64,000 nt of DNA from Strigamia acuminata (lineage: Eukaryota > Arthropoda > Chilopoda > Geophilomorpha > Linotaeniidae): NCBI GenBank assembly GCA_949358305.1, contig OX442314.1, positions 39,157,211-39,221,210 on the forward strand, given 5' to 3'. Below, piece after piece: positions 7,562-47,889 of the stretch (its first letter is position 1; each line of letters opens with the position of its first letter). The notes below the pieces were generated by a model. The model was not told where the DNA came from. It was given only the letters and a program-made list of their open reading frames with translations, and searched no databases. Position numbers and translations under genes: made by a program.

Positions 7562-10500
7562 TCAGCCAAAAATTCCCCGGAATAAATTCCCAGCGGCATA
7601 TGCTACGTTTGCTACGTAGTTTGCGGCTACTACCCTTCCCACAACGTTCGCAGCAGCGTACACAACTCCAGACACATAACTGGCGGCCGTTACAATTAAT
7701 CCAGCAACAAGAGTGCGCAACCAAGCGTACATGTATAAAAATATGCCACCGTACAATCTAGAAATGTCCAAAATAACTCTCGACTGCACTCTAAACAGCC
7801 TTAAATCATAATGCAGTCTGGATGCTGGCAACCGGATGTAAAACCAAATCTGTCCAGAGGCACTCGTCTGCTGCTGGAATTGCAAATTCTTATATACGGT
7901 CGACAGCATAAGATACGTGACTGTTTCAACGTCCACATTATTCAGTTGCACAGCGCGTCCTCCGTTGATCGAAGTGGCCAATATCAAATTGTTTTTCGCA
8001 TCGCGGGTTATCAATATTAAAGATTCGGCGGCAGCGGTCAGTTGCAGACCCGTGGCTCTGGCGGCTGCACTCAAAGAACGGAATTGGTAATCTCTCTTCA
8101 AGTTGACGGCAGCAAACACGTACGTTCCGTCCGGGGCTATTTTAGCGGCGTAGCGGAAATTCGGATCGGCGAAGATGGCCACGAGCAACTCGATGACGAC
8201 TGCCGGTTGGAAGTGCTCGAATTGCAATCCTTTGGTGCCGTAGCCGAGAAGAAGCGTGAGATCGCTCTTTCGGTGGATCGTTATGGAATTGCCTTGCTTT
8301 CGACGAAGGTCGTTGATTAGCTGGATGAATTTGGCTTTGACGTTCGTGAAGACGACAATGTTCGCGCCTTGTTTCAACACACGTTTGACCACGTGCACCT
8401 GGTAGTTGGTTCCCTGGGATACTTTTTGAATTTCAGTTTTTCTTTGCGGGTGCAGCAAAAACTGAATGAAAAATTCAATGGCGGACGATGAAAAGTGGTT
8501 GAAAGCCATCTTGTGCGACGTTGTTGCTAGAGCTAAACTGTAGTCTTTTCCAGTCGCCGTCAAAGTGAAGCTGAGCGACGAAATTTCCGGTTGGATTTTG
8601 ACGAGGAAGTTGTAAAAGTCGGGACTGACTTTGAAATTGTTGGAAGTGACGGCTGCACTGGGGAGTGCGATTCGAAATTTGCCGTAAGAGTCGATGTAAA
8701 TACGAGTGTGCACGTTTTTGGTGAGAATCAAAAAGAGAGGTTCGAAAACCAGTTTGGGGATGCCGGGAATCGTGCGCGAGGCTCCGTTCGTGTAGCCTAC
8801 CGTCAGGTCGAACGTGCCTGGTTTTCCGTGTCTCGCAGATGCGGAAATGACGTTCTTGGTAATGAAGGTGATTAATTTGACACTGTCCCCAGAAATCGTG
8901 AAGTCTCTAGTCGGTAAATTGAATCGCCGTAGAACTATCACTTCAACTCCGTCGCTGTCACGCTCGGTTTCGATCTTTGTGTCCGGATGCGAAAACAAAA
9001 CGTTGATGAATTCGATCGCGTATCTGTCGAGGTAGTGGAAATGTTGAATCTTCTTGGCGTCGAGATAAAAGTCGACGTCGAATCGGCCCAGGTTTTGATG
9101 GTCGGGCGTGATGTCGAAGCTCAAGCGCGGGTTTTTCACTTCCTTGATGAGGAAGGAAAGAACGTTCTTTGGTAGAGTTGTGAATTTCGGTTCGCTCGGT
9201 CGTTTGGGAATGACCAGCTTGTAATCGTCGTCCTCGGAGTAAATGTAGAACGGGAGTCGGGGATTGGTGACCACGTCGACCAAGAACTGAGCGGCGTTGG
9301 GTTTGATGTGCTTCAATGTTTTCTTTCCTTCAGGTGTGTCGAATTCGATGTCGAAGTATCCTTGTTTGTCTCGGATCAGTTTGATGTGGTTTACCGGCTT
9401 TCTGCGAAGATCGTTGATAAACTGTACTTTGTCGCTGCTGATCTTTACTTGGGTCGTTTGCGGGCTTTCCTTCGGTACGATGGCGCTCATCGAACCGTCG
9501 GCCTCCGGTTCGATCTTATAGGTCAAATCGGGCTTGGTCACGAGCGCGACTAACAACTCCAAAAGAGACGGGGTAATTTGGTTGAATTGTTTGCCGCCGA
9601 CGGAAATGGTAAATTGTCCGTGTTTGTCTGGCTCGATGGTGAAATCTGGGTTTTTCATACTACGCACGTCTTTAATAGTGTTTTTGGTGCCTGGAAGCAA
9701 AGCTACTTTGCGCTTGGTGTCATCTGTTTTCGGTACGATAAGAGTGACGCCGTATTCGTTTGGTTTCACGGAAAACGGCAGGTTGTCGTTTGCTACGAAG
9801 TCGATAATCAGACGAACGTCATCTGGCTTTATTTTCTGGTAGGTTTTGGGCTGGCCGTGTTCGGTGAGAGTGATCGAGTAATCTTGCTTTGTGGGATGGA
9901 TTTTGAGGGTGGTCCAGGGTTTTGATTTGATGGAAGAAATGATGTCGAAAACACGGTTGGGTATTTCGTAGTGGTGGTCGCCGGGCTTCGAGTGGGAAGG
10001 TAAAAATTGAATGCTGCCGTCTTTGGTCGGTTTGATTTCAAAATCAACGCTCGGTGTGAGGTAGAGTTGGGAAAGGATCGGAATCAGTTCGAAGCTTATG
10101 TCGGGGTAGGTTTGAGTTTTTGCTCCGTCTTTTAACTCGATCGTGAACGACCGCGGTTTTTTACCGGGCAGAAGATTGAACGTTAGGTACGGGTTTTTCT
10201 TCACACGGCCTATCAGTTCGAGAATGTTCGGTGCGAGTTTTGTTTTCACGGGTCTAGGGTGCTGTTTCGGCACGATTAAGTCGAGCTTTCCATTTTTGCC
10301 TGGCTTGATGTTGAATGGAAGAGAGTCGTCAGATTTCAGCCGAATGAGGGTCTCTACCGCGTCCGAAGGAAGATCTTTGAGTTTGTGCTCTTTTCCATTC
10401 CTTTTCGTGGTAAGAGTGAAATGCCCGTTTTTGTCCGGTGTAATTTCCAGTTGGGTCTTAGGGTCGTTCCTTATTGCATCGGTGACTTCAAGAACATCGG

Positions 10501-13500
10501 GTGAAACGGAGAAGCGATTAGTGTCCGGAGAGTTTTCATCTGGCACCTTGATATTCACGTGTCCTGGCTTCTGCGATGGTAATATTTCAAAGGGAAGATT
10601 TTTGTTGCTTCTGACCTTGATTAAGCCAATCAATGTCGTTACAGGAATGTCTGGGTAAGTAGTCTTGTGGACTCCATCGTCAACGACAATGTCGTAGAAT
10701 CCTGGTTTCGATGGCTTTACGGAAATCTTCAGGTGGGGAGAATTTTTCACCGTGTTCAGCAAGTCCAGGGTGGATGGTTTGTGTTGTTTTGGACGGTAAA
10801 CTCTTCTTTGCTCGTGAGTGTTAAGTACAAGGTTTCGACCGGTTGGTTTCGGAGGACTTATTGCTACTTTGTTGGATTTAGGAGGACTGATCGCTGCTTT
10901 ATTCGGTTTAGGAGGACTTATCGCTACTTTGTGCGTGGACGGAAATTTAGTTGTTGATGGCTCGTGTTTCGTCGCAGGCTTTACTTTTAATGGAATTTCG
11001 TTTCCAACCGGTTTGTTAACGGTAAGTGTGTGCTTCGGTGTGTGAGGTACGTCTTTGGTCGAGTGCTTACCAGGTGTATCGTGCTTGGTAATTGTATGCG
11101 GCGTGTTCTTTGGCTCGTTGACGAAGTTTATGAAAAACTGCACAAAGTTGTTCGGTAGGTTCTTGAAAACGTATTTCTTAGTGTCTAAGGTTACGGTGAC
11201 GTCGTACTTCTTGTCAGCAGTAGGTTGTATGTTGTAAGTTATCTTTTTGGCTAGATCTGGATTTTTCTCCAACTTTTTGATAAAGGTGACGAAGGTGTCG
11301 TCAACGGGACGCGTGGTGGTCTCGGGCTCGGTATTCAAAGAGATGTGAGGATTTTTGCCATTTTTCGACAACACGTGATAACGAGGTTTGCCGTCCTTTC
11401 TTTTCGGAGTTTTCAGCAGCTGTACTACCACTGGAATCAATGATTTTGGTACTTTGTACGTTTTCTTGCCAGTATCGTCTTCCACTACCAATTGGAACTC
11501 GCCGGGCTTCGGTTCTTCGATTTTCACTGTGATTTTAGGATCTTTCAAGATTTTCTCCAGCTTGGGGAGAAAATCGATTGGAATTGCACTTGTTGTCGGT
11601 GTGTTGTCTGCATTCTTCGGTAAGACAATCGTGTATTTGCCGTCGGATTGCGGCGTGACTTTAAAGTCCAGTTTGGGATTTTTGAAGAGGAAAATTATAA
11701 GCTGTGCTAGACTCAGATCTACATTTCTGTATGTTTTTGGTTTGCCATCGAATGTGATGGTCAGTGTGTAGCTGTTATCTGGCTCCTGTTTGACTTTAAT
11801 TTGACTCGTTGGATTTTTCTTGAGGAAGTTGTATGCTTCTAGAAATTTCGGGCCGATAGTGTAACTCGTTCGGATTGTCGTCGAGGTGACAGGAATGCTG
11901 GCTTTGCCCGAACGAGACAAGTTGATCTTTGAGTTTGGGTGTCTGGCCTTGTAGATAATAAGTTGCGCCACTTTAGACGGGATCCCGGTAATGGTTCTCG
12001 GCTTTCCCTTATCCAAAAATGTCAAAGTGTAGACACCGTTCTTTTTGCTCACGTGGGTCAACTTTAGATCGGGATTGGTTTGGAGATCTTTAATCAGTTG
12101 AATGGTTTCAACGTTCAGTTGTACTGGAGAAGATCCGTCGGAATCTTCGCTAACGGAGATTTTAGCGTTTGGACCGCTTTTAGAATCGAAAGTGATTTTC
12201 AAACTCGGATTCGTGTATAATTGGATGAAAAAATCGACCAAATTCTTGCGGATGTTCTTCAACACACGCTTGCCTTTGCTCGTCGTGATTGTTATCGTGT
12301 ATGTCCCATCCGAATTAGTCGTGATTATGGGCTCGCCGTACACTACTTTGTTTCGAGCTTCGGTGATGAAATCGTAGAATTCTATAGTTACCGTGTAAGA
12401 TCTGACCTCCTGAGATCCATCACGGCTTACGGTGCCACTTCCAACGACGCTTGTCCTGGAAGTATATGTGTACGATGTCGACGAGTCTTCGACGACGGAA
12501 ATTTTCACGTTTGAACCGCTTTTTGAGACGACAGAAATCTTTAAATTCGGATTGCTAAATAGCTGGGCAAAAAGATCGACTATATTCTTGGGAACATTTT
12601 TCAGCTCGCGCGTGCCTTTGCTCGTGGTGATTGATATCGTGTAAGTCCCGTCCGAATTAGAGGTAATTGTGGGTCGGACATTCACTCCACCATCTCGAGC
12701 GTCAATGAGGAAGCTGTAGAATTCGGAAGTGACTGTAAATTCTTTGGCGCCCCCGCCGGATGAAAAACTGGGTGAATAAGTGTAGGCTGATCCTTCGGAT
12801 TCTTCGACGACGGAGATTACCACGTTCGAACCGCTTTTTGAAACGAGAGAAATCTTTAAATTCGGGGTGGTGAATAACTGGGCAAAAAGGTCGACTAAAT
12901 CCTTGCTGATATTTTTGAGCTCGCGTGTGCCTTTACTAGTGGTAATTGATATAGAGTAAGTTCCACCCGAATTGGTGATTTTGGGTGTGACATTCTCTCC
13001 GCCAGCTCGGGCTTCAGTGAGAAAACTGTAGAATTCAGAAGATACTGTAAACTGTTTGGCGCCCCCACCAGATGAAAACTTGGAAGAAGTGTAGGTTGTT
13101 GATGTTGCAGAGTTTTCACTGATAGATATCGTAACATCTGAACTGCCTTTCGTATTGACGGAAATTAATTCATTTGGATTGATGTATAACGAAGTAAACA
13201 GGTCAACTGAGCGCTTGTCAATGTTCTTGAGTTCACGTGTACCTTTGCTCGTGGTGATTGATATTGAGTATGAGCCATCCGAGTGATTGGTTATTCTCGG
13301 GTGAGCAGATGCGCCGCCGGTTTTGGCGTCCCTGATAAATTTAGCAAATTCAGATGATACCGTGTAGTATTTGACGCCTCCACTAGAACTACTGTTGCCG
13401 ACAATGTGGGAACGTCCATTTGCATGTACAAATGACACTGGAAATAAATAATTAAAAAATAAATGATTATAAAAATGGCTACTCCACCGGAAACAATAAT

Positions 13501-13651
13501 TCACAAAGTTTTTCGTAAGAATCTGAGGTGGCCAATTCCCTGGTCTCCTCGTTCCCCCAGACATAACACCCCTGGATTTTGTGAACACCCTGTGATACTC
13601 ACCTCCAATGAAGAGCGCAAGAAACAAGAAACTGAGGTAGTGGTTTGCCAT
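7562..13651 (-). CDS. giant secreted repeat protein, cysteine-free, unknown family
   Basis: I do not recognise this family. Exon 1 is 13603-13651 and exon 2 is 7562-13437. Removing the intron gives a typical signal peptide (MANHYLSFLFLALFIG then VSFVHA) and a protein of about 1,974 aa. The body is about 19 tandem units of 85-105 residues. Each unit is a doubled alpha-beta-beta pattern: a short strand, a helix (FYSFLTEAR type), two strands ending in a GKxxTYKNI-like turn, a second helix (LVQLLI type), an NP turn, and two strands ending IVPK. The first four units are far more alike (shared TTSKGTRELKN) than the rest, suggesting recent expansion at the N-terminal end. A Pro/Lys linker with three VAISPPKPNK-like repeats follows unit 8. 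The last 60 residues are Ala/Val/Gly-rich and hydrophobic. I see no Cys in the spliced product and very few Trp. A secreted structural, adhesive or coat protein is an inference. Confidence 0.85.
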   Translation of the reverse strand: MANHYLSFLFLALFIGGEYHRVFTKSRGVMSGGTRRPGNWPPQILTKNFVNYCFRWSSHFYNHLFFNYLFPVSFVHANGRSHIVGNSSSSGGVKYYTVSSEFAKFIRDAKTGGASAHPRITNHSDGSYSISITTSKGTRELKNIDKRSVDLFTSLYINPNELISVNTKGSSDVTISISENSATSTTYTSSKFSSGGGAKQFTVSSEFYSFLTEARAGGENVTPKITNSGGTYSISITTSKGTRELKNISKDLVDLFAQLFTTPNLKISLVSKSGSNVVISVVEESEGSAYTYSPSFSSGGGAKEFTVTSEFYSFLIDARDGGVNVRPTITSNSDGTYTISITTSKGTRELKNVPKNIVDLFAQLFSNPNLKISVVSKSGSNVKISVVEDSSTSYTYTSRTSVVGSGTVSRDGSQEVRSYTVTIEFYDFITEARNKVVYGEPIITTNSDGTYTITITTSKGKRVLKNIRKNLVDFFIQLYTNPSLKITFDSKSGPNAKISVSEDSDGSSPVQLNVETIQLIKDLQTNPDLKLTHVSKKNGVYTLTFLDKGKPRTITGIPSKVAQLIIYKARHPNSKINLSRSGKASIPVTSTTIRTSYTIGPKFLEAYNFLKKNPTSQIKVKQEPDNSYTLTITFDGKPKTYRNVDLSLAQLIIFLFKNPKLDFKVTPQSDGKYTIVLPKNADNTPTTSAIPIDFLPKLEKILKDPKITVKIEEPKPGEFQLVVEDDTGKKTYKVPKSLIPVVVQLLKTPKRKDGKPRYHVLSKNGKNPHISLNTEPETTTRPVDDTFVTFIKKLEKNPDLAKKITYNIQPTADKKYDVTVTLDTKKYVFKNLPNNFVQFFINFVNEPKNTPHTITKHDTPGKHSTKDVPHTPKHTLTVNKPVGNEIPLKVKPATKHEPSTTKFPSTHKVAISPPKPNKAAISPPKSNKVAISPPKPTGRNLVLNTHEQRRVYRPKQHKPSTLDLLNTVKNSPHLKISVKPSKPGFYDIVVDDGVHKTTYPDIPVTTLIGLIKVRSNKNLPFEILPSQKPGHVNIKVPDENSPDTNRFSVSPDVLEVTDAIRNDPKTQLEITPDKNGHFTLTTKRNGKEHKLKDLPSDAVETLIRLKSDDSLPFNIKPGKNGKLDLIVPKQHPRPVKTKLAPNILELIGRVKKNPYLTFNLLPGKKPRSFTIELKDGAKTQTYPDISFELIPILSQLYLTPSVDFEIKPTKDGSIQFLPSHSKPGDHHYEIPNRVFDIISSIKSKPWTTLKIHPTKQDYSITLTEHGQPKTYQKIKPDDVRLIIDFVANDNLPFSVKPNEYGVTLIVPKTDDTKRKVALLPGTKNTIKDVRSMKNPDFTIEPDKHGQFTISVGGKQFNQITPSLLELLVALVTKPDLTYKIEPEADGSMSAIVPKESPQTTQVKISSDKVQFINDLRRKPVNHIKLIRDKQGYFDIEFDTPEGKKTLKHIKPNAAQFLVDVVTNPRLPFYIYSEDDDYKLVIPKRPSEPKFTTLPKNVLSFLIKEVKNPRLSFDITPDHQNLGRFDVDFYLDAKKIQHFHYLDRYAIEFINVLFSHPDTKIETERDSDGVEVIVLRRFNLPTRDFTISGDSVKLITFITKNVISASARHGKPGTFDLTVGYTNGASRTIPGIPKLVFEPLFLILTKNVHTRIYIDSYGKFRIALPSAAVTSNNFKVSPDFYNFLVKIQPEISSLSFTLTATGKDYSLALATTSHKMAFNHFSSSAIEFFIQFLLHPQRKTEIQKVSQGTNYQVHVVKRVLKQGANIVVFTNVKAKFIQLINDLRRKQGNSITIHRKSDLTLLLGYGTKGLQFEHFQPAVVIELLVAIFADPNFRYAAKIAPDGTYVFAAVNLKRDYQFRSLSAAARATGLQLTAAAESLILITRDAKNNLILATSINGGRAVQLNNVDVETVTYLMLSTVYKNLQFQQQTSASGQIWFYIRLPASRLHYDLRLFRVQSRVILDISRLYGGIFLYMYAWLRTLVAGLIVTAASYVSGVVYAAANVVGRVVAANYVANVAYAAGNLFRGIFG
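13438..13602 (-). other. in-frame intron of the repeat-protein gene
   Basis: The donor GGAG|GTGAGT and acceptor TTTATTTCCAG|TGTCA are both strong. The intron is 165 nt (a multiple of 3) and lacks stop codons, so the frame reads through it. The retained version would insert 55 basic/aromatic residues, including the only cysteine, into the signal peptide. That makes splicing the sensible reading. Confidence 0.8.
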
Positions 13652-13700
13652 GGTTGCTCTCGTAGAAAGAGCTGATGCATTTGGGAGAATATTTCGGGGG

Positions 13701-13708
13701 TATATATA
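13701..13708 (-). promoter_or_regulatory. TATA box of the repeat-protein gene
   Basis: TATATATA lies 50 bases upstream of the start codon, so a start site 25-30 bases downstream would leave a 5' UTR of roughly 20-30 nt. A strong TATA box and short leader are typical of highly expressed, tissue-specific secreted-protein genes. Confidence 0.7.
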
Positions 13709-14667: not shown

Positions 14668-15058
14668 TGTGAGTGTTCGTTCGGATGCCACGTGGTCAGG
14701 GGGGGCCACGAGGCACTGAACGCAACACACACGATGATTCAATCCACGAAATACAACAGAGACACAAGTTTAGGTTTTGGTTATTGCTTTATTGTTGTCT
14801 AAGGGTATGATATGGTGTCTGAAGGTGTATTTCCCAGGTGTAATGGCTGCCTAGCAGCCATTCCTGATTCGACCGCATGTCACTGCAATCTTGAGATTGC
14901 CATGACACTTGAGATTGATTGAATGCAGTTCGGCCGCGTCGTCGCAACGTTCTTAGGAACATGCGACGAAGACGGCGTCTTGGACGCTCAGGTCCCGGTG
15001 GGCGACAGAGTCGCCACGCCGATCGTTCGAGTCACTCTTGTCATCAGGCATGGGAAGA
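14668..15058 (-). mobile_element. LTR, truncated at one end
   Basis: Same family as the solo LTR at 28444-29022: TGTGAGTGTTCG terminus, GTGTCTGAAGGTGTATTTCC, GGACGCTCAGGTCCCGGTGG and CGCCACGCCGATCGTT. It stops at about 15058, where a different LTR-like sequence begins, so the TGTGACC end is missing. Confidence 0.7.
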
Positions 15059-15430
15059 AGGTGTGGTGACCTCAAATATTCCTATTTGAGTGTGCACCAT
15101 ATTTCCAAATCATCTTAGAACAATAACAAATAATATTCTATGTTCTATTTCAATGTAAGTTGAAATAAAACATATACTGCCATAGTTAAATAAAAGACAC
15201 AATATTACTCAAATAATATTGTCTCTTGCAGCAAGTTTTGGCCCAGCGACAGCGTCAACCAATCACGCTGCGGCATGCATTGCTTTGATGATGCTGCTGG
15301 CGCATGCCTGGGCGGAGCATCCCCTCCTCTAGCGCGTGCCTGGCTCAATTGTTGCACACGACCCAAAGGCGGCCGTGTGTGATCTATACGCAACTCGTCA
15401 TCTGCGCAGCTTTACTGAACAGATTTCGGA
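15059..15430. repeat. LTR-like repeat of a second family
   Basis: GTGTGGTGACCTCAAATATT followed by GTGCACCATATTTCC closely matches the reverse complement of 60540-60600, beside the copia remnant. It continues through an ATTACTCAAATAATATTGTC hairpin as at 60430-60460. Position and structure fit an LTR promoter/R region; the element body is not intact. Confidence 0.5.
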
Positions 15431-15639
15431 GTGAGCCAAACGGTTTTGGCCCACTCTTCCCGCACTCTTGATTCCACTTCCAAACTGTTCACAACCGTGT
15501 CAAACTTCTGCCTAAAACTGCAAAGTGTGACCTGTGATTTACTGGAAGAATTGAGATTCATTGCTGGTCCGTGCCAACTGTACGGAATAGCGCCCTACTG
15601 CTTGAATTACTACGTGTAATTTAAGCCATATCTGTGTGA

Positions 15640-15801
15640 AACTGACATTGAGCTTGCTCTGTCAGTTAGAAGTGTTTTGTGTCGAGTTAAACTCCACAAA
15701 GCGATCTGTGTAAAGACGGATTATTACGTCGAGCTTGCTCCGTGATAATCAACCCGCTGTGTGCAAGACGTATTCTCGTGTTGAGCGTGCTCCACGGGAA
15801 T
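15640..15801 (+). ncRNA. array of four stem-loops with one shared architecture
   Basis: Four consecutive hairpins at 15640-15667, 15674-15702, 15719-15750 and 15772-15801. Each has a lower stem of 8-10 bp whose sequence differs every time, then a 2-nt 5' bulge (TT or TC). Above it is a 3-bp GAG/CTC stem and a 4-5-nt loop (CTTG, TTAAA, CTTG, CGTG). Lower stems are AACTGACA/TGTCAGTT, GTTTTGTG/CACAAAGC, GATTATTACG/CGTGATAATC and ATTCTCGTG/CACGGGAAT. Conserved bulge and cap over changing but paired stems indicates selection on RNA structure. They lie in a non-coding stretch just after LTR-like sequence. A packaging or protein-binding signal of a retroelement leader is an inference. Confidence 0.55.
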
Positions 15802-16119
15802 TTAGGTGTATTTAGAGGTAGGATTTTGGCATCAAGTTTACCCTGTCAAACTCCCGCGCTCACGCGACACCATCGACGCCATCTTGGAGCCGACCGTTAT
15901 TGTGAGTGTGTATTTGAAGAAGAAGCCAGATCGACCCAGTCATTACATTTATTTAACTTCATATTCACTCTGTATTTTAGAACAATTAAAGCAATCTAAT
16001 TTTTCCTTTACTTTTGTGTGTAAAATCATTCCCCTAGACAACCATTTGGCCACAGAGTAGAAGTCCTGTACGGCATCTCGACGACGATTACTTATTAGAT
16101 TTAACTAATTTAGTAAGTG
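15802..16119. other. non-coding stretch after the hairpin array
   Basis: No convincing gene; overlapping plus frames (15742-16060) lack recognisable domains. It may be the remainder of a retroelement leader. Confidence 0.35.
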
Positions 16120-16378
16120 AAAACCCGGATCGCCGCAAAGGTCGGGAAGCGACCGTTCACCATGCTGATCCAGAAACAACTGCCTGGGCCACTGCGGGGC
16201 CCACCCACTTCCGAAATGGCACTTCCGGGTCCCGATTGTCCGAAGCCAACGGCCCGCAGCTCCACCTGGTTGCGGGGAACCGCAAACAGGTTGCGCACGA
16301 GAAACACGTGGTGCGCGAGAGCTGTGAAGTGTCGTGTATTGCAGGCAAGTGATCAGCCTGCTTGGGCAGCTGGTCACA
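16120..16378 (-). mobile_element. LTR fragment, TGTGACC...CTCACA family
   Basis: Over about 240 bp it is nearly the same as 1-247 (shared CACCTGGTTGCGGGG, GTGGTGCGCGAGAGCTGTG, ending CAGCTGGTCACA). The other end is cut at about 16120. Confidence 0.7.
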
Positions 16379-20382: not shown

Positions 20383-22464
20383 ATGGCGCAGAAGGGGAGT
20401 TTATTTCAGCAGCGAGGACGGACGGATTCCAAGATTTTGTCCAAGAGATACGACGCCGATGGAAATGTCGTGGACGTAATAATACTACCCAATTTACTAT
20501 TTCCGAATACATATGTGTCGATTGAAATGGCAACGAAACTAAACGAGGAAATTATTCGTTCCAATTAGGTGGAGTCGCGAGAAGACGACGAACAACACGA
20601 GAAACTCGAAGCGATCGTGTCTCTGCTGCTCGCAGCCGGCTATTTCCGAGCCAGAATCAAAGGACTGTCTTCCTTCGACAAGGTGGAACCATACACAAAT
20701 AATTATCGTTGTTACTCCATTTTATTTCGTTGCTTGCAGGTGGTCGGAGGAATGGTGTGGTGCATCGAAACGTGCAACTTCGACGTCGACATCGATTTAT
20801 TGTTTCAAGAGAATTTGACAATCGGACAAAAAATGTAGAGAAATATATAAGTGAACAAAGATTTGATTTGATTTAATTTTTTTTACTAGATCGCTCACGG
20901 AGAAAATCGTTGGCGTGCTGCCACGAATGAAATGCCCGCATCGGTTGGAGCCGCATCAGATCCAGGGATTGGATTTCATTCACATATTTCCAGTCGTTCA
21001 GGTGTTGTTTGAGATGGAAATTGGAATAAAAAAAAATAAACCTCTTTTAGGGGGGAAAATCTAGTCAAAATGGGGGTTAAATAATTTGTGGCCGAATCAA
21101 AATGTCGGTCTCACTGAGAAATTTTGTCGTTGCAGTGGCTCGTGAAGCGTGCGATCGAGACTCGCGAGGAGTTGGGCGATACGATTCGATCGTTTTCCAT
21201 TTCGCAGTTTAATAAACATTTCAGCGCACCGCAGGATGAAACGTTTAATAATCTGAAGGCAAAATCCATGTCGACCGTTGCTCACGTGTTGGTGAGGTTC
21301 TGCGAGTTTTTCTTGTCGTTTGTTTTGAATTAATGGCGAATTAATCGGTTGTTAAAGGAGGTGTACAAACCGCGGCGTCGGTATAAGAGGAATGCGGCTT
21401 TGCAAACGCGGGAGGAAATGTTGAAAGTTCATTGCACGCTTTTGGAGTACGGCAAAAGCGTTTTCGTCCCGTCTTCAAAGCCTAAGGTTTGGGAATAAAT
21501 AAATAAATACGGTAGAGCCTCGATTATCGGAACACCGGTTATACGAACTATCGGTTATTCGAACAGCTGTAAAGCAATTTTTTTATCGACTTTAATCGGT
21601 TTTTTTTATTGATTTTATTGTTTTTTGACGATTTTTACATAATTTTAGTAGGTTTTTAATGTTTTTTGACGATTTTTATCCATTTACAATCGGTTTTTAA
21701 TGTTTTTTGACGATTTTTACATAATTTTAGTAGGTTTTTAATGTTTTTTGACGATTTTTATCCATTTACAATCGGTTTTTAATGTTTTTGGACGATTTTT
21801 ATCCATTTTTTGATGGTTTTTATCCATTTTTTGGTGATTTTTATCCATTTTTTGACGATTTTTATCCATTTTTAATTGGCTTTTAATGTTTTTTGGACGA
21901 TTTTTACATAATTTTAATCGGCTTTTAATGTTTTTTGGACGATTTTTACATAATTTTAATCGGTTTTTAATGTTTTTGGACGATTTTTATCCATTTTTTG
22001 ATGGTTTTTATCCATTTTTTGGTGATTTTTATCCATTTTTTGACGATTTTTATCCATTTTTAATTGGCTTTTAATGTTTTTTGGACGATTTTTACATAAT
22101 TTTAATCGGCTTTTAATGTTTTTTGGACGATTTTTACATAATTTTAATCGGTTTTTAATGTTTTTGGACGATTTTTATCCATTTTTTGATGGTTTTTATC
22201 CATTTTTTGGTGATTTTTATCCATTTTTTGACGATTTTTATCCATTTTTAATTGGCTTTTAATGTTTTTTGGACGATTTTTACATAATTTTAATCGGCTT
22301 TTAATGTTTTTTGGACGATTTTTACATAATTTTAATCGGTTTTTAATTTTTTTGGACGATTTTTATCCATTTATTGACGATTTTTATACACTTTTAATCG
22401 GTTTTTAATGTTTTTTGACGATTTTAAAACATTTTTAATTTTTCGGATAATCGAGGCTCTACTG

Positions 22465-37386: not shown

Positions 37387-40300
37387 TTACTTTTCTTTGT
37401 CTGCCATCCGGCGCAACAACAGGCGAGTCCGCTCCGCGTCCTCCTTACTGTAGAGTTGCGCTTTTTCTGGGGCCCCTTTACCAGTCTTCTTGGTTGGTAA
37501 GGTGGTGCGTGGTGCCCCTCTCTCCAAAGGATCCGCCGTCCCACTTGGACCAGGTTGGTCTGGATCTTGTATGGGTTCCATCCGCACCATTTCAGCGACC
37601 TTTAGTCCGTGTTTGGGTAGTCTCGCCACTGGTGCATTGCGGTAGCTGGCCAAAACCGTTTCCTCGTCATCCTCCTCCTCCCCCGAGGACAGGTCTTTAT
37701 AATTAATCTCGATGTTCCTGGCCGCGCGCGTCCTCGGTCTCGGTTGCGAGTTGACGGCGTCGCGGTGGGGTTCCTCCATCTGCTGGTCGACCGCTACCTC
37801 CTCGGTCATCGTCAGCACGGGTGGCGCCTCCGGGGCTAGCACTGGAGCTTGACCGCCCACTGGTACCACTTGGGCTCCAACAGGTGTCTGCCCGGGTGTT
37901 GGGAGCCTCGCAACTTGCGGTGGGGTGAGAAAAGGTTGCGGTGGCGTCTGTGGTGTTGGTGGTGTCGGGGGCAACGGGACGGGTGGCGTCCCTAACAACG
38001 GCGCGTACGTGTAAAGCCTCAGCTCGCCCCCGCCCTCGGGAGTAACCGGCGCCACGACCGGCACCGGAGTCACCACTTCGCTCGGGTCCGCCGCATCGCG
38101 TCTCCTCACGTGGTTCAGGTGTCTGACCACTTGCTTGTTGGTCTGGACATCCCTCAAGCGATAGACGACCTCGCCGCTCCTCTCCAAAACAATCCCCGGC
38201 CGCCACGGCGGGGTACTTGCCGGGAACGACTTGTACCATAGTCTGTCGCCCACGGTAAAGTTCCTGAAACGAGAGTTAGTAGCCGCCACACTCACCGCGC
38301 ACCTGGGTTTTACCAAATCCAAAAAAGTAAACGGCTGTCGCCCTATGAATAGCATCGCTGGCGACTGATTGTCCCGTCCGCGGAAACTCGTATGTTGGTA
38401 AAGCATGAGTCTGAGCAAGCGCAGTTCCAGATCTCCCTTGGTGAACTTTGCTAAACGGTCCTTGACCCAACGCACCGCACGTTCCGCCTGCCCGTTAGAC
38501 TGGGCGTGGTATGGGGGGGAGAACATATGCTCGACCCCATTTCTCCTCAAAAAACTGGCAAACTCTGCAGACGTGAACTGGGCTCCGTTGTCGCTGACCA
38601 AAAGGTGCGGGAGCCCAAAAGTACTAAACACACGCCTGAGAATCAAAATTGTGGTCGCTGAAGTGGCCGTTCGCGTCGCCCTCGCCTCGATCCATCCAGA
38701 GTAGGCGTCAACCAACACCAAAACCATCTGGGACTGAATGGGACCGGCGTAGTCAATGTGCACACGGGCCCACGGCTCCTCGGCACGCGGCCATGAAATA
38801 GGCAGTGCGTGTGGCGGCAAAGATCTGCTTTGCGCGCAGATGACGCACTTCTGCACGAAGTTAATGATTTGCGGGGTAATTCCCGCCCACCACACGGCCC
38901 TGCGGGCCCTCTTTTTCATGGCCACAATGCCGGGATGGCCTTCATGAAGGAGCCGCAGCATCCTAGGCTGCAAGGCCCCGGGCACCACCACTCTAGCCCC
39001 CCACAAGAGGACTCCCGCCATAAGTGAGAGTTCCTCAAAACGGTTGGCATAAACAGCCAACTCGGGGCGACCTGCAAGCGAGGCGAAATCTCCTCCACGG
39101 ACCGCAGCAACCACCACAGTCAACTCTGTGTCGACTGCCGTCGCCTTCGCGACTTCCACCGCTGTCAACAAGTTCTCCCCCTCCATCTCGACCAAAAATA
39201 CCGGTCGGTCATCAACCTCAGCTGGCGCCGGATCGCAAGGGAATCTGCTGAGGACATCAGCATTGGAATTGTCGGCTCCCCTGCGATACCGCAACACATA
39301 AGAGTAAGCTGACAAAAGGAGGGCCCAGCGGAGCATTCTGGGGCTGACCACCAACGGAATTGGTCGGTCAGACCCCAAAATGCCCAACAAGGGCTTGTGG
39401 TCGGTGTAGATGGTGAACTCCCTGCCCATCAGATATATATGGAACTTTTTCACCGCGAATACCACCGACAGCGCCTCCTTGTCGATGTGCGCATAGTTAC
39501 TCTCGGCACGGCTGAGGGATCTCGAGGCAAAAGCAACTGGATGTTCTCTTTCCAGTTTGTCAACGTGGGCCAAGACCGCCCCTACCCCATAAGGGGACGC
39601 GTTCGCAGCGATCACCAGCGGACGATGAAGATCGTAGTACGTCAAAATGGGAGCGGACGTTAAAGCTCGTTTGATCACGTCAAATGCCTGCTGCCTGCGC
39701 TGGTTCCAGACCCAAATTGCCTCCGCACACAATAGTTCGTATAGCGGGGTCGCCTTGTCGGCCAAGTGTTCAATGAACACGGCGTAAAACGCCACCATCC
39801 CTAAAAATGTCCTAAGCTGCTTCACGTCAACAGGAGGTGGGATTGCCAAAACTGCCTCAACTTTTGACGAGATCGGTCTGACTCCCTTCTGGCTAATTGA
39901 GAAACCCAAAAAATTTAGGCCACTCTCACAAAACAAACATTTTTCCCTAGCCAGGTGTAAACCCCTATCAGCCAATCTACGAAAAATCTGCTCCAAAACC
40001 CACAAATGTTCCGGCAAATCCCACGTTGCAACAAGAATGTCGTCCAAGTAGACGAAGATGCGGGGCACCCCGTCCAGGACTGAGATAATAATCCGCTGGA
40101 AAATCCCAGGGGATGGCATAGTCCCAAACGGGAGCCTGGTAACGGCTATAAGGCCTTTTGGGGTGTTCACAGCCGCAATAACAGCCGACCTCTCTGATAG
40201 CGGAATTTGCAGATACGCTTGCCTGAGGTCAAGCGCACTGAAGAAACGCGCTCTGCCAATAGACGCAAGCAACTCGGCTATGCGAGGCAGGGGGTACGGG

Positions 40301-42387
40301 TCAGGCTGTAAATTGGCGTTCACGGTGGACCTGTAATCCCCGCACAGGCGAACCCCCCCGTCTTTCTTTTGCACAGTGACCAGGGGAGTCCCCCACACGG
40401 AGAACGGAATCGGCTTGAACACCCCTTTGGAAATCAAATCGTCTATCTCCAAACTGACCGCCTCTCTAAGCGGTAGTGGAATAGGCCTCGGCCTGTAAAA
40501 TCTGGGAACCGCATCTGGTCTTAAAATAAGATCAACCGGTTCACCCTTGTAAGTTCCAAGACACTCACTAAACACGTGTGCGTAACGCAATAACAATTCA
40601 CTCAAGGAACCAGCTCTCTGGGCACTCGCACTCGACACTTCAACGTGATCCACTGGGCTCGCCGACGGGTGTTGACCACTCACAGCAGCTCCGTCACCCT
40701 CCGCTGGCGGCGCCGGGTCACGTCCATCTCCTGAAATTAAAGCGGCAGAAATATTATGCCAACCAAACTTGTGTACAGCATCCCGACCAATAAGACTAGG
40801 GCCCTGACGCCCCACCACTACAAAATTTACCCTTGCTGTTACCTCACCCATATGCATATTCAGCCACACCTGCCCCAACACCTCAATGGGCTGGTGTTGG
40901 TATGCAAACAGCTTAACTGAAGTGGGGGTAATCGCCCTCCTTGAAATCAATCGCTTGGTCAGCAAGACGTTGCAATCAGTCGCATTCAGCACCGACAGCT
41001 CACTGCCGGTATCCAACAATAGGTTAAGCCTGAAAGAATTCAAAACCACCTGCACAATAAGGGGCGGCGACCTCACTCTCGCTCCAACGACATGGAACAA
41101 GGCGAAATCCTCGTCTTGCTCCTGTATCACGTTGATTGGAACGTTCCGCTGCCTCCACTTCTCATCAGAACCTCCTGCTCCACCAAAACTGCCGTCAACC
41201 TCGGCTGGAAACGTCGCCGGTGGGCATGCTCCCTCCTGATCGTTCGCCTTCTTGCGCCACTCACCAATCATGCGGCCACCCGGTCGTTGATCTTGACCGG
41301 CTCTTGGTCCCAATGCTGGCTCAAAAGGGCAATCCCTAACGAAATGCGGTCCGCCGCAACGAAAACAGTCGACGGGCGTGCCATCCCTTTTTACAGGTTG
41401 GCCGCCTCGCCCACTACTCTGCCCCTGGCGCCCGCGCCAAGGTCGCTGAAACGAACCACGTTGAGCACTGGTCCCTGCGCCTGAAAAACCGGGTGAACCG
41501 AATTGGTTGGCTCTTCCACGGCCCCTCTGCGGACCGCGGCGGCCACCCATCGACAACTGCATCAACGCCGCCGAAGCTGGCGCTTTGGTCGGCTCTTCAT
41601 CCGTGAATGGCAACGGTTCTTCGCGTCCCGACGCCGCAATGTGGGCCATCTCGTGGGCGACGGCACGTTTTGTCACCTGTTCTGCCGTCAACGGCATGTT
41701 GAGAAGAATCTCGCGGACCAAAACCTCATTCCGCGATCCTCGTACCACCTGATGGACGATCGCCCCGTCCGTTTCTTCCTTGGTTGCGAATCCGCAACGT
41801 TGAGACAGAATCCGTAACTCTGCTATGTGTTTTTCCACCGACTCTCCCTCGTGGCGTTTGCGCGCTCCGAATCGCTGCCGAGCCATATACGGGGTGTCAA
41901 CTGACGTGTAGTGCTCCTCAACCACGTCCAAAATCGCATCCAAACCCATCGTGACGACTTCCTTCGGGTGCGCCCACCGTTTGATTTTATCAAACATTGG
42001 TATGCCAATCACAGTCAAAAGTAGCGGGACCTGTCTGTCTGCTTCCACCTTATTCAACAGGACAAACTGCTGGTAAGTTTGCTTCCAGCTTGTCCACTCA
42101 TGCAGCGTGGAACCGGAAAACGGCGGAATGCCGCCAAGCATCAATTGTGCCATGACCAACAGCAACACAAAACCACACAAACCGGTAAACCTCGCGTTCG
42201 ACGACCCGTGTTCGATCACGTAGGCCCGACGTTCGTCTCGACGTCGAAATCTCTCTTGCGCACGTCTACACGACGTCGCCGACGGCTCGCACGCCGCACG
42301 CCACCAATAAGAGTCCAAAGCTCCGCCCGAACGTCGACTCGCCGACGCGGCACTCATCAATTGCAGCAAAAGTAGGCAAAAACTCAC
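37387..42387 (-). CDS. gypsy Gag-Pol polyprotein
   Basis: One open frame of 1,666 codons. Met79 (42151-42153) aligns with the gag start of the second gypsy copy at 55.6-57.0 kb, so it is probably the true start. Order: capsid-like Gag (79 to about 300), an Arg/Gly-rich tract, zinc knuckle CFRCGGPHFVRDC (341-353), protease LLLDTGSE (456-463), RT with FVYLDDILVAT (YLDD 780-783), and RNase H. Then integrase with HEGHPG and CVICAQ zinc ligands, catalytic HIDYAG, SDNGAQF and NGQAERAV. A Pro-rich tail follows. Gag and Pol share one frame with no shift. The first RNase H Asp is replaced by Asn929 (AANASPYG; codon 39601-39603). Related to the Mag/K02A2.6-like gypsy group by general RT features, not proven. 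Confidence 0.93.
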   Translation of the reverse strand: MSFCLLLLQLMSAASASRRSGGALDSYWWRAACEPSATSCRRAQERFRRRDERRAYVIEHGSSNARFTGLCGFVLLLVMAQLMLGGIPPFSGSTLHEWTSWKQTYQQFVLLNKVEADRQVPLLLTVIGIPMFDKIKRWAHPKEVVTMGLDAILDVVEEHYTSVDTPYMARQRFGARKRHEGESVEKHIAELRILSQRCGFATKEETDGAIVHQVVRGSRNEVLVREILLNMPLTAEQVTKRAVAHEMAHIAASGREEPLPFTDEEPTKAPASAALMQLSMGGRRGPQRGRGRANQFGSPGFSGAGTSAQRGSFQRPWRGRQGQSSGRGGQPVKRDGTPVDCFRCGGPHFVRDCPFEPALGPRAGQDQRPGGRMIGEWRKKANDQEGACPPATFPAEVDGSFGGAGGSDEKWRQRNVPINVIQEQDEDFALFHVVGARVRSPPLIVQVVLNSFRLNLLLDTGSELSVLNATDCNVLLTKRLISRRAITPTSVKLFAYQHQPIEVLGQVWLNMHMGEVTARVNFVVVGRQGPSLIGRDAVHKFGWHNISAALISGDGRDPAPPAEGDGAAVSGQHPSASPVDHVEVSSASAQRAGSLSELLLRYAHVFSECLGTYKGEPVDLILRPDAVPRFYRPRPIPLPLREAVSLEIDDLISKGVFKPIPFSVWGTPLVTVQKKDGGVRLCGDYRSTVNANLQPDPYPLPRIAELLASIGRARFFSALDLRQAYLQIPLSERSAVIAAVNTPKGLIAVTRLPFGTMPSPGIFQRIIISVLDGVPRIFVYLDDILVATWDLPEHLWVLEQIFRRLADRGLHLAREKCLFCESGLNFLGFSISQKGVRPISSKVEAVLAIPPPVDVKQLRTFLGMVAFYAVFIEHLADKATPLYELLCAEAIWVWNQRRQQAFDVIKRALTSAPILTYYDLHRPLVIAANASPYGVGAVLAHVDKLEREHPVAFASRSLSRAESNYAHIDKEALSVVFAVKKFHIYLMGREFTIYTDHKPLLGILGSDRPIPLVVSPRMLRWALLLSAYSYVLRYRRGADNSNADVLSRFPCDPAPAEVDDRPVFLVEMEGENLLTAVEVAKATAVDTELTVVVAAVRGGDFASLAGRPELAVYANRFEELSLMAGVLLWGARVVVPGALQPRMLRLLHEGHPGIVAMKKRARRAVWWAGITPQIINFVQKCVICAQSRSLPPHALPISWPRAEEPWARVHIDYAGPIQSQMVLVLVDAYSGWIEARATRTATSATTILILRRVFSTFGLPHLLVSDNGAQFTSAEFASFLRRNGVEHMFSPPYHAQSNGQAERAVRWVKDRLAKFTKGDLELRLLRLMLYQHTSFRGRDNQSPAMLFIGRQPFTFLDLVKPRCAVSVAATNSRFRNFTVGDRLWYKSFPASTPPWRPGIVLERSGEVVYRLRDVQTNKQVVRHLNHVRRRDAADPSEVVTPVPVVAPVTPEGGGELRLYTYAPLLGTPPVPLPPTPPTPQTPPQPFLTPPQVARLPTPGQTPVGAQVVPVGGQAPVLAPEAPPVLTMTEEVAVDQQMEEPHRDAVNSQPRPRTRAARNIEINYKDLSSGEEEDDEETVLASYRNAPVARLPKHGLKVAEMVRMEPIQDPDQPGPSGTADPLERGAPRTTLPTKKTGKGAPEKAQLYSKEDAERTRLLLRRMADKEK

Positions 42388-42478
42388 AATTTCCTAATGT
42401 GTCCCATTTAGGGAGCTTCCTCTGTCCAACATACTGTCCAATTGTACTACTCAGGCTTCTTTTTATCGTGGATACCAC

Positions 42479-46192: not shown

Positions 46193-46692
46193 GTTGAATC
46201 TTCGTCTTTTGTTCTCACCTTGTCTCAACAAAATAGAATTCGACGAGGAGATTGCGTTTATGTGAATTAAGAATTTGAATATTTGAAGAGTGCAAGGAGT
46301 CACAATTTACAAAACTGTAGAAATTGCACATGTTTCGACGTGGTTATCGATCTGTGAATCTTCCTACTTGTTAGACAGCAAAGAAAATAGAAAGATTGTG
46401 TAAAGTTATGTCAGAAAGTCCAAAATGGTCAATAGCATTTAAGAAGTTATACAAAAACAATTTTATTTACATTCTACTTCCATCTACGTCTATAGAATAA
46501 TTCTTCATCCAGTTTCCAGAGGTAATATTGTATGAATACATACTTGTAATTCAATAGGATTCAAAAAATGTCACCAGAGGTCACTACAGAAACTAAAAAG
46601 TACGTCAGACGAACGTTCGCCGTTGGTCAGATGGACACTGATATACAAACACACCCGGATGGGATTAGATCATTGCGAAAGGAAGCGTCAAG
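46193..46692. other. spacer between the RING gene and RBM22
   Basis: Holds the 3' UTR of the RING gene and presumably the RBM22 promoter. A plus frame opening at 46568 overlaps RBM22 in another frame and is not a gene. Confidence 0.45.
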
Positions 46693-47889
46693 ATGGCGAC
46701 ATCCAAATCATCCAACACTTACAACCGTCAAAACTGGGAGGACGCCGAATTCCCGATTTTGTGTGAAACTTGTTTGGGCGATAATCCCTACGTGCGTATG
46801 ACCAAGGAGAAATACGGAAAGGAATGTAAAATCTGCGCGCGACCGTTCACCGTATTCCGTTGGTGTCCGGGCGCAAGAATGCGTTTCAAGACGACGGAAA
46901 TTTGCCAAACATGCTGCAAACTGAAAAATGTTTGTCAAACTTGCATACTCGACCTCGAATACGGACTGCCCATCCAAGTACGCGACTCCGCAGAACCGTT
47001 AAACGAAGACATGCCCAAATCCAACGTAAACAAAGAATACTACACCCAAAACATGGACCGAGAGTTGGCGAACAATGAACAGACGGCCCTGACGGGAAAA
47101 TCACAAGCTCCGAGTGATTTATTGCGCAAATTAGCCCGAACAACGCCTTATTACAAGAGGAATCAGCCTCACATTTGCAGCTTTTGGGTGCGAGGTGAGT
47201 GTAAACGCGGCGAACAATGTCCCTACCGGCACGAAAAACCTTCGGATCCCGACGACCCGTTGGTCGATCAGAACATTAAGGATCGTTATTACGGTGTAAA
47301 TGATCCCGTAGCGGATAAATTGCTGCGTCGAGCCTCCGCCATGCCGCATTTGGAGGCTCCGGAAGACCGGACCATAACCACATTGTACGCGGGCAATTTA
47401 GGAGACACCGTTACGGAACAAGAGTTACGGGATTTGTTTTACCAGTTTGGGGAAATCCGTTCGGTGACGGTGGTCAGTCGTCATCAGTGCGCTTTTATAC
47501 ATTTCGCGACTCGGACGGCGGCTGAAGCGGCGGCCGAAGGAACGTTTAATAAGCTGGTGGTTGGTGGTCGGCGGTTGAGTATTAAATGGGGGCGGTCTCA
47601 GGCGAAGATTGGAGCGGCCAGTGTGATGGGAAATAATGCAGACGGCGGGAAAGAGTTGGCTCCGGTGCCTGGATTAGCTGTTCTACCGCCGTTACCCGAA
47701 GAACTGACAAATAACTACTTCAACTTGAACCAACCACTCGGGTTAAGTCCGAGTTTGATGGGTCCACTCGTCGTCCAGTTGCCTCAAGTTGCGCAAGCGG
47801 TGTGTAATTCGTTAATTCCTAGATCAGTTAAACCAACGATTCATTATCCGTCTCAAGATCCGCAGCAAATGGGCTCTAAAAAGTTGTAA
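46693..47889 (+). CDS. RBM22: RBM22 / Slt11-type pre-mRNA splicing factor
   Basis: A single open frame of 398 codons (human RBM22 has 420). RBM22 (yeast Cwc2/Ecm2-Slt11 related) is a spliceosome component that contacts U6 snRNA and the pre-mRNA near the active site. The N-terminal Cys-rich zinc region ([42 protein letters not shown]) is followed by a CCCH finger (C162 to H180, [19 protein letters not shown]). Then come [14 protein letters not shown], an RRM (about 229-303, with TLYAGNL and CAFIHFATR) and a variable tail. No introns are present, unusual for this otherwise spliced region. The poly(A) signal AATAAA is at 47918-47923. A short duplicate of its 3' coding part lies at 50290-50352. 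Confidence 0.96.

What the first reader, a model, noticed from the sequence alone, without database searches (positions are those of the whole stretch)
15640..15801. Four consecutive RNA hairpins with one conserved cap and bulge but different, compensating stems
Seen directly: each of four adjacent hairpins has an 8-10 bp lower stem of unrelated sequence, a 2-nt 5' bulge TT/TC, a GAG/CTC clamp and a small loop (CTTG twice, CGTG, TTAAA). Four independent stems that all pair perfectly or with single G-U wobbles, under an invariant top, is hard to get by chance or simple duplication. It implies selection on RNA shape. The location right after LTR-like sequence suggests a retroelement leader, so a Gag-binding/packaging or translation signal is an inference. 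I know of no described motif with this exact form.
Basis: partly seen in the sequence, partly recalled or inferred. Interest (0 to 1): 0.88.

Follow-up and report, generated by a model that had tools for sequence, protein, structure and literature searches.

The report
TAR-like hairpin array in centipede LTR
A jumping element in a centipede-like genome carries a row of RNA hairpins whose stems change in matched pairs while their tips stay fixed, and the fixed tip resembles the spot that arginine-rich proteins grip in HIV TAR and 7SK RNA.

Summary
The four hairpins (15640-15801) lie inside, not after, an LTR: a solo LTR (15062-16137, 4-bp target duplication) of a Ty3/Gypsy element of about 12.8 kb with many copies, in a centipede-like host. 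Most other copies read carry a fifth hairpin, decayed here (15824-15851).

Over 42 divergent arrays, 98.5% of 2625 stem cells pair, with 85 double-change cells (shuffle mean 26). On a tree, 23.9 double changes keep Watson-Crick pairing (0-1 in slid controls), and single changes go to G.U about three times as often as to A.C (48.7 vs 16.8; p 0.002 against the linker background). This points to selection on sense-strand RNA.

The conserved tip reads purine - U - Y - G-A-G-Y / R-C-U-C. The first bulge base is U in 207 of 209 cells while the second varies freely; the base below is a purine in 208 of 209. That is the sequence signature of the arginine sandwich motif of HIV TAR and 7SK, without TAR's apical loop.

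Best reading: a tandem RNA platform for an arginine-rich protein, perhaps the element's own Gag. RNA-level selection is supported; binding, partner and transcription start are not shown.

The parts
15062..16137 (+). Solo LTR of a Ty3/Gypsy element (TGTGGTGAC...GCCGCA) that holds the array; target-site duplication AAGG at 15058-15061 and 16138-16141
   Evidence: blastn between copies, termini and 4-bp duplications in other copies, window sequence
15600..15626 (+). H0: plain 11-bp hairpin without the bulge or cap, directly upstream of the array
   Evidence: 96.5% of cells paired in 50 sequences, G.U 68 vs A.C 3 cells; on the tree 7.0 vs 1.0 events (p 0.07) and 2.0 double events
15640..15667 (+). 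H1: 8-bp lower stem, UU bulge, GAGC-UU-GCUC cap
15674..15702 (+). H2: 8-bp lower stem, UC bulge, GAGU-UAA-ACUC cap
15719..15750 (+). H3: 10-bp lower stem, UC bulge, GAGC-UU-GCUC cap
15772..15801 (+). H4: 9-bp lower stem, UU bulge, GAGC-GU-GCUC cap
15824..15851 (+). H5: fifth hairpin, intact in most other copies read, decayed in this copy (clamp reads AAG/CCC)
15632..15638 (+). Linker motif CTGTGTG before H1 (CTGTGTR also at 15706-15712 before H3 and 15757-15763 before H4); the first and third are nearly invariant
   Evidence: minor-allele fractions 0-0.03 in the first and third copies, up to 0.4 at the ends of the second
15985..15990 (+). ATTAAA, the likely polyadenylation signal, downstream of the array, with a GT-rich stretch after it
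   Evidence: invariant in 15 of 15 aligned LTRs; that it is used is inferred
16088..16120 (+). 14-bp hairpin in U5 near the primer-site end of the LTR, also pair-conserved on the sense strand
   Evidence: WC to G.U 20.0 vs WC to A.C 3.9 events and 11.5 double events

Best explanation
The array is a cis-acting RNA element of a Ty3/Gypsy retrotransposon, encoded in its LTR and, lying upstream of the polyadenylation signal, present in its transcripts. Each unit is a stem whose sequence may change but must pair, topped by a fixed recognition head: a purine, a bulge U plus one free pyrimidine, then G-C, A-U, G-C and one more pair closing a 2-3 nt loop. The head has the sequence features of an arginine sandwich motif, in which a bulged pyrimidine forms a triple with the A-U pair above it and an arginine stacks between that pyrimidine and the purine below. 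Five such heads in a row (4, 5 or 7 in relatives), some joined by conserved CUGUGUG linkers, form a multivalent site for an arginine-rich protein. The likeliest partner is the element's own Gag, whose N-terminus carries the basic patch KRxRGRPSTQKR, to gather or package the genomic RNA; a host arginine-rich protein is the alternative. Shown: LTR location, the array, selection for pairing with a sense-strand bias, the conservation pattern of the head. Inferred: transcription through it, sandwich geometry, protein partner, biological step.
For: Pairing: 98.5% of 2625 cells paired, 85 double-change cells (shuffle mean 26.0, 0/500; slid versions at most 11) over 42 arrays. On a tree of 49 LTRs: 23.9 double changes to another Watson-Crick pair, against 0-1 in four slid controls (one parsimony resolution each); WC to G.U 48.7 vs WC to A.C 16.8 events, p 0.002 against the directional background of the linkers, 97.8:79.0; 15.4 vs 2.9 on internal branches, p 0.017 on the same background. 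Head, 5 hairpins x 42 rows: bulge base 1 is U in 207 of 209 (mean variability 0.010), bulge base 2 is the most variable class (0.273, U or C in 206 of 209), base below is a purine in 208 of 209, A of GAG 209 of 209; clamp 0.012, lower stems 0.076, linkers 0.14. TAR and 7SK: bulge U23 or U40 forms a triple with A27-U38 or A43-U66, the base preceding the bulge is the floor in TAR, R52 contacts G26 and R49 contacts G28 (PMC6189040, passages). PMC10970485 (passages) calls the first bulge uridine indispensable together with the G-C and A-U pairs above. Gag N-terminal basic patch in 4 of 4 copies read.
Against: The sandwich is read from sequence alone; no 3D or binding data. The invariant third G-C pair and the covarying loop-closing pair are not needed by floor and triple alone. 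In free 7SK the floor of the U40U41 motif is sequestered until Tat binds (PMC6189040, passages), so the fold need not be preformed. No Tat-like gene was identified; Pfam has no match for the Gag N-terminal 431 aa or the 756-aa third ORF, and the Gag patch does not align meaningfully with the host HEXIM (score 19 in its frame). The patch also contains an AT-hook-like RGRP (recalled), which would suggest DNA binding. No Rfam match. Whether the array is at the 5' end of the RNA is unknown. About 17 single events break pairs as A.C and 13 as other mismatches, mostly on terminal branches. Slid controls also lean to G.U (16:8, 11:7, 24:17, 25:3), and transitions over all lower-stem sites are no more skewed than in linkers (77.6:60.2 vs 97.8:79.0), so the strand bias rests on changes at true pairs and is moderate; the double changes are the stronger evidence.
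Confidence: 0.45

Rival explanations
1. Gag packaging or assembly signal of ordinary kind: the hairpins are read by the nucleocapsid zinc knuckle or by Gag shape recognition, and the resemblance to an arginine sandwich is coincidental.
For: Gag with Retrotrans_gag and one CCHC knuckle. Only 71-72 nt separate the primer-binding site from the gag ATG in 4 of 4 copies, so leader signals would lie in R/U5 or in gag. Several similar hairpins fit multivalent Gag binding. For yeast Ty3, packaging needs both UTRs and POL and the sites are not precisely defined (PMC11381356, passages).
Against: Zinc knuckles usually read unpaired G (recalled), and these loops expose almost none. It does not explain why the first bulge base is fixed and the second free.
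Confidence: 0.25
2. Post-transcriptional regulator read by a host protein: nuclear export, stability or translation control, with the UGUGUG linkers as part of the site.
For: Two of three CTGTGTR linkers are about as invariant as the clamp. The array lies upstream of ATTAAA in the LTRs aligned (15 of 15). Nematode Cer1 needs its own protein CERV for export of its genomic RNA (PMC10309623, passages).
Against: No direct evidence. The export elements named in that paper (MPMV CTE, the Rev-bound region) are single structured regions, not arrays of short hairpins (recalled).
Confidence: 0.18
3. DNA-level element: palindromic binding sites for a dimeric transcription factor, or cruciforms in the LTR promoter.
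For: The GAGCNNGCTC core is nearly palindromic DNA and LTRs are promoters. Double changes alone would also fit a cruciform.
Against: Arms outside the core pair but differ between hairpins. The 2-nt bulge is on the 5' side in the intact hairpins read. Single changes keep G.U about three times as often as A.C on the sense strand (p 0.002 on the linker background). A palindrome elsewhere in the LTR (15429-15456) shows no such bias: 6.3 vs 10.0 events.
Confidence: 0.06
4. Mutational artefact: template switching across imperfect palindromes makes matched changes in both arms with no selection.
For: Such switching can correct quasi-palindromes and could give double changes in one event (recalled).
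Against: It would be expected to erase the bulge, which the intact hairpins keep, and would not favour G.U over A.C. H0 and the U5 hairpin lean the same way while the LTR helices 15071-15090, 15199-15222 and 15299-15340 do not; one U3 helix, 15146-15167, does (10.0 vs 0, 2.0 double).
Confidence: 0.05

Closest known systems
HIV-1/HIV-2 TAR hairpin (Tat-binding bulge)
   Same: 5' pyrimidine bulge starting with U, G-C and A-U pairs directly above it, then a G; purine directly below; located in an LTR
   Different: No apical hexaloop for cyclin T1 (loops of 2-3 nt instead); 4, 5 or 7 separate hairpins in tandem with linkers; no Tat-like gene found; position relative to the transcription start unknown; different host lineage and element class
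Arginine sandwich motifs of 7SK snRNA stem-loop 1 (HEXIM/Tat binding)
   Same: Several sandwich motifs clustered in one RNA; the U40U41 bulge with its A43-U66 triple matches the U-Y-G-A head (PMC6189040, passages)
   Different: In 7SK the motifs share one stem-loop; here each has its own hairpin. No Rfam match; a 7SK search of this genome did not complete
Yeast Ty3 genomic RNA structure
   Same: Ty3/Gypsy class; structured 5' end with sites for tRNA annealing and dimerisation (PMC11381356, passages)
   Different: The Ty3 dimer site proposed there is a palindrome in a hairpin; nothing like an array of bulged hairpins appears in the passages read
LTR stem-loops in general (Benachenhou et al. 2013)
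   Same: Conservation in long R regions linked to stem-loops (PMC3601003, passages)
   Different: No repeated cap motif described in the passages read

Membership tests
Ty3/Gypsy LTR retrotransposon | RT, RNase H, then integrase order in pol | tested here: met
   RVT_1 (partial and below its cut-off, because the fetched piece starts inside it), RT_RNaseH, Integrase_H2C2, rve in that order; named Pol relatives include Ty3/Gypsy proteins
Ty3/Gypsy LTR retrotransposon | LTR with TG...CA ends, short target duplication, tRNA primer site, polypurine tract | tested here: met
   4-bp duplications, polypurine tract with seven G, primer site 2 nt after the LTR (tRNA-Pro-like; the tRNA assignment is recalled)
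Arginine sandwich motif (ASM) | Bulge pyrimidine able to form a triple with the A-U pair above | tested here: met
   sequence precondition only: U in 207 of 209, A-U pair conserved
Arginine sandwich motif (ASM) | Paired nucleotide directly below the bulge serves as floor | tested here: met
   sequence precondition only: purine in 208 of 209
Arginine sandwich motif (ASM) | Actual base triple and arginine intercalation | not testable with these tools
   needs NMR or binding work
Lentiviral TAR | Apical loop that binds cyclin T1 | tested here: not met
   loops are 4-5 letters whose outer bases pair in 105 of 112, leaving 2-3 nt
Lentiviral TAR | Located at the very 5' end of the transcript | not testable with these tools
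   no transcript data; array is in the LTR upstream of ATTAAA
Lentiviral TAR | A Tat-type transactivator encoded by the element | tested here: inconclusive
   Gag basic patch and a 756-aa ORF without Pfam match
Any Rfam family | Score above the family's gathering cut-off | tested here: not met
   none in the array; none at E up to 10 in 15600-15900

The most novel reading that the evidence does not exclude
An arthropod Ty3/Gypsy element has independently evolved a TAR/7SK-like control system: a tandem array of arginine-sandwich hairpins in its LTR that captures an arginine-rich protein (its own Gag or a HEXIM/P-TEFb-type host factor) and so couples its RNA to transcription elongation or to assembly.
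Probability: 0.25. Interest if true: 0.9.

Novelty: new variant of a known kind. Interest (0 to 1): 0.72.

Why it matters
Cis-acting RNA signals of animal Ty3/Gypsy elements are poorly known (recalled); even in yeast Ty3 the packaging sites are not precisely defined (PMC11381356, passages). Here is one with strong evolutionary support, a defined unit of about 28-32 nt and natural variants in copy number (4, 5, 7). If the head really is an arginine sandwich, the TAR/7SK mode of recognition exists outside lentiviruses as a repeated module in a mobile element. That would make convergence of Tat-like recognition directly testable.

Tried and rejected
Tried without result: Rfam; Pol relatives in IMG/VR (none); Gag piece in the protein collection (none at E up to 1e-3 among 7993 scored candidates); solved structures for the third ORF (none at E up to 1); Pfam for the Gag N-terminal part and third ORF (none at E up to 10). 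A pattern for U-A closed caps only gave 2 matches, both one unrelated 21-bp tandem repeat. Literature: no report of such an array in what was listed: searches found 0 papers; one search found 5, on HIV/7SK; some searches listed 20 of 275, 10 of 18 and 10 of 332, seen as titles and abstract starts only (passages of a few were then read). 7SK in this genome: not answered.

Rejected: DNA palindromes and template switching (see rivals); kissing-loop dimerisation, because loops of 2-3 nt are too small (recalled). An attempt to place the transcription start from where the RNA-type bias begins was dropped, because U3 is also in the RNA at its 3' end and one U3 helix (15146-15167) also shows the bias. 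One search selects helices by pairing, so its G.U counts are biased and are not used as a test. The upstream palindrome was indexed one base off; one search repeats it correctly. The clamp letters counted are partly fixed by the scan and that list holds some false positives, so (alignment columns) is used for the head.

Rows dropped: A1 uses 33 of the 40 hits (7 partner copies left out; 29 distinct rows). A2 uses 42 of 61 unique arrays (60 plus the window); dropped were 7 four-hairpin sister arrays, 2 seven-hairpin arrays, 2 truncated ones and 8 further five-hairpin ones close to rows kept. The tree holds 49 LTRs (those aligning over at least 600 bases).

Full report
Where it is. The window is C1:39157211-39221210 of a 237.5-Mb genome in 157 contigs. 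RBM22 in the window (46669-47889) is closest to the centipede Strigamia maritima (77% identity, 749 bits against 637 for the next hit), so the host is probably a centipede-like myriapod. The array's DNA gives 40 scored matches of 262 candidates in the genome, many in pairs about 11.7 kb apart. Comparing one such pair shows that the repeat is an LTR: L003 and L004 are 99.5% identical over 1084 bp with no other match in 3.2 kb. The window copy is a solo LTR, 15062-16137, between AAGG duplications. Of 35 other loci examined, both LTR ends were found in 22: ten solo LTRs have matching 4-bp duplications, two (L209, L217) do not, and the other ten are one end of a full element or repeats of the same copies. 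Full elements have a primer site 2 nt after the LTR and a G-rich polypurine tract, gag with a CCHC knuckle, and pol with RT (partial in the piece), RNase H, integrase in the Ty3/Gypsy order. A third ORF of 756 aa is open in three of four copies read and interrupted in the fourth.

What is there. Each unit is a lower stem of 8-10 bp, a 2-nt bulge on the 5' side, a GAG/CTC clamp and a small loop. Under fixed criteria no other hairpin of this form occurs in the 64 kb on either strand and none in 20 shuffles. Relatives mostly show five hairpins, a sister group shows four with different stems (for example L073, L211), and L083 shows seven. The genome-wide pattern for two C-G closed caps 25-50 nt apart has 271 matches against 4 for the backward control; only the first places were listed. 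Mixed caps gave 9 matches, all of them LTR relatives.

Selection on pairing. In 33 near copies (29 distinct), 99.6% of 1479 cells pair; 3 pairs have changes on both sides, 12 vary on one side through G-U, and 6 cells are unpaired. In 42 divergent arrays, 98.5% of 2625 cells pair; double changes fill 85 cells (shuffle mean 26.0, none of 500 shuffles reaches it; the best slid version has 11). Against this, the number of pairs with a double change, 9, is reached by 38 of 500 shuffles, and the count of pair types does not exceed the shuffles. Cell counts are inherited, so I also counted events on a tree of 49 LTRs built from columns outside 15600-15860 (means over 20 parsimony resolutions): in the lower stems, double changes to another Watson-Crick pair 23.9; single changes from Watson-Crick to G.U 48.7, to A.C 16.8, to other mismatches 13.1. 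On internal branches, that is in lineages that went on to multiply, G.U and A.C are 15.4 and 2.9.

Controls. Four slid versions (one resolution each) gave 0-1 double changes to Watson-Crick pairs. They also lean to G.U (16:8, 11:7, 24:17, 25:3), probably in part because they re-use the same sites. A directional check on the linkers gives A>G plus C>T 97.8 against T>C plus G>A 79.0, and all lower-stem sites together 77.6 against 60.2, so there is a mild directional background and no extra skew in stems as a whole. Against that background the excess of G.U at true pairs has p 0.002, and 0.017 on internal branches; at an even null it is 1e-4. G.U on this strand is A.C on the other, so the bias points to the sense RNA, with moderate strength; the double changes are the stronger evidence for pairing.

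Other helices of the LTR: 15429-15456 6.3 vs 10.0, 15071-15090 1.0 vs 6.0, 15199-15222 2.0 vs 2.5, 15299-15340 7.0 vs 6.0 (G.U vs A.C), with no double Watson-Crick events in these four. H0 (15600-15626) shows 7.0 vs 1.0 and 2.0 double events, a hairpin in U5 (16088-16120) 20.0 vs 3.9 with 11.5 double events. One U3 helix, 15146-15167, also shows the bias (10.0 vs 0, 2.0 double). So RNA-type constraint is concentrated in the array, its plain neighbour and U5, but not confined to them.

The head. Counted on alignment columns (5 hairpins x 42 rows), the first bulge base is U in 207 of 209, the second is U or C in 206 of 209 and is the most variable class of position (mean minor-allele fraction 0.273 against 0.010 for the first), the base just below the bulge is a purine in 208 of 209, and the A of GAG never varies (209 of 209). 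Clamp 0.012, lower stems 0.076, linkers 0.14. The loop's outer bases are C-G or U-A in 105 of 112 unique hairpins. A fixed first and free second bulge base is what an arginine sandwich predicts: in TAR the bulge U23 joins A27-U38 in a triple, A22 is the floor, Arg52 contacts G26 and Arg49 contacts G28; in 7SK U40 of the U40U41 bulge joins A43-U66 (PMC6189040, passages). PMC10970485 (passages) calls the first bulge uridine indispensable, with the G-C and A-U pairs above it, and prints an HIV-2 Tat site that I read as having a two-U bulge. The match is to sequence preconditions only. TAR's cyclin T1 loop is absent, so this is not a TAR; it may work like one at the bulge.

Who binds. The gag ATG lies 71-72 nt after the primer site and Gag begins with a basic patch, KR[QL]RGRPSTQKR, in 4 of 4 copies read. 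It could be an arginine-rich RNA binder; its RGRP core also resembles an AT-hook (recalled). The genome has HEXIM (two matches over the cut-off), with its own basic stretch, to which the Gag patch does not align meaningfully. These are leads, not evidence of partnership.

Where in the RNA. ATTAAA at 15985-15990 is invariant in 15 of 15 LTRs, so the array should be upstream of 3' end formation and in the transcript at least at its 3' end. I could not locate the transcription start, so a 5' position like TAR's is open.

Novelty. No Rfam family matches, and the literature searches listed no report of such an array in a retrotransposon; three of them listed only part of their hits, and subscription papers and Repbase were not searchable.

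Noticed in passing
window 15632-15638, 15706-15712, 15757-15763: The linkers before H1, H3 and H4 carry CTGTGTR; the first and third are nearly invariant over 42 arrays. A UG-rich site that a host RNA-binding protein could read.
   Followed up: partly
window 16088-16120: A 14-bp hairpin in U5 near the end of the LTR shows the same sense-strand pairing bias and 11.5 double events; possibly a U5 hairpin next to the primer site.
   Followed up: partly
L250:946-3213 (+), also L251 and L252: A third ORF of 756 aa after pol, open in three copies and interrupted in L256, with no Pfam or PDB match; two pieces of the interrupted copy showed no transmembrane stretch.
   Followed up: partly
L209 (reverse strand, LTR positions about 115-550): A copy whose U3 interior is replaced by unrelated sequence while the LTR start and the array-to-U5 part are kept.
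   Followed up: no
window 37387-42393 (-): A 1668-codon open frame with RT, RNase H and integrase, another Ty3/Gypsy-type element; no hairpin of this form lies near it in the window, but its LTRs were not mapped.
   Followed up: partly
window 7562-13708 (-): A 2048-codon open frame with no Pfam domain over its cut-off; 12141-13285 holds four repeats spaced 312-342 bp.
   Followed up: no
window 21572-22457: Tandem array of 21-bp units, with copies 188 bp apart 96% alike.
   Followed up: no
window 46669-47889 (+): RBM22 in a single open frame; closest to Strigamia maritima.
   Followed up: partly
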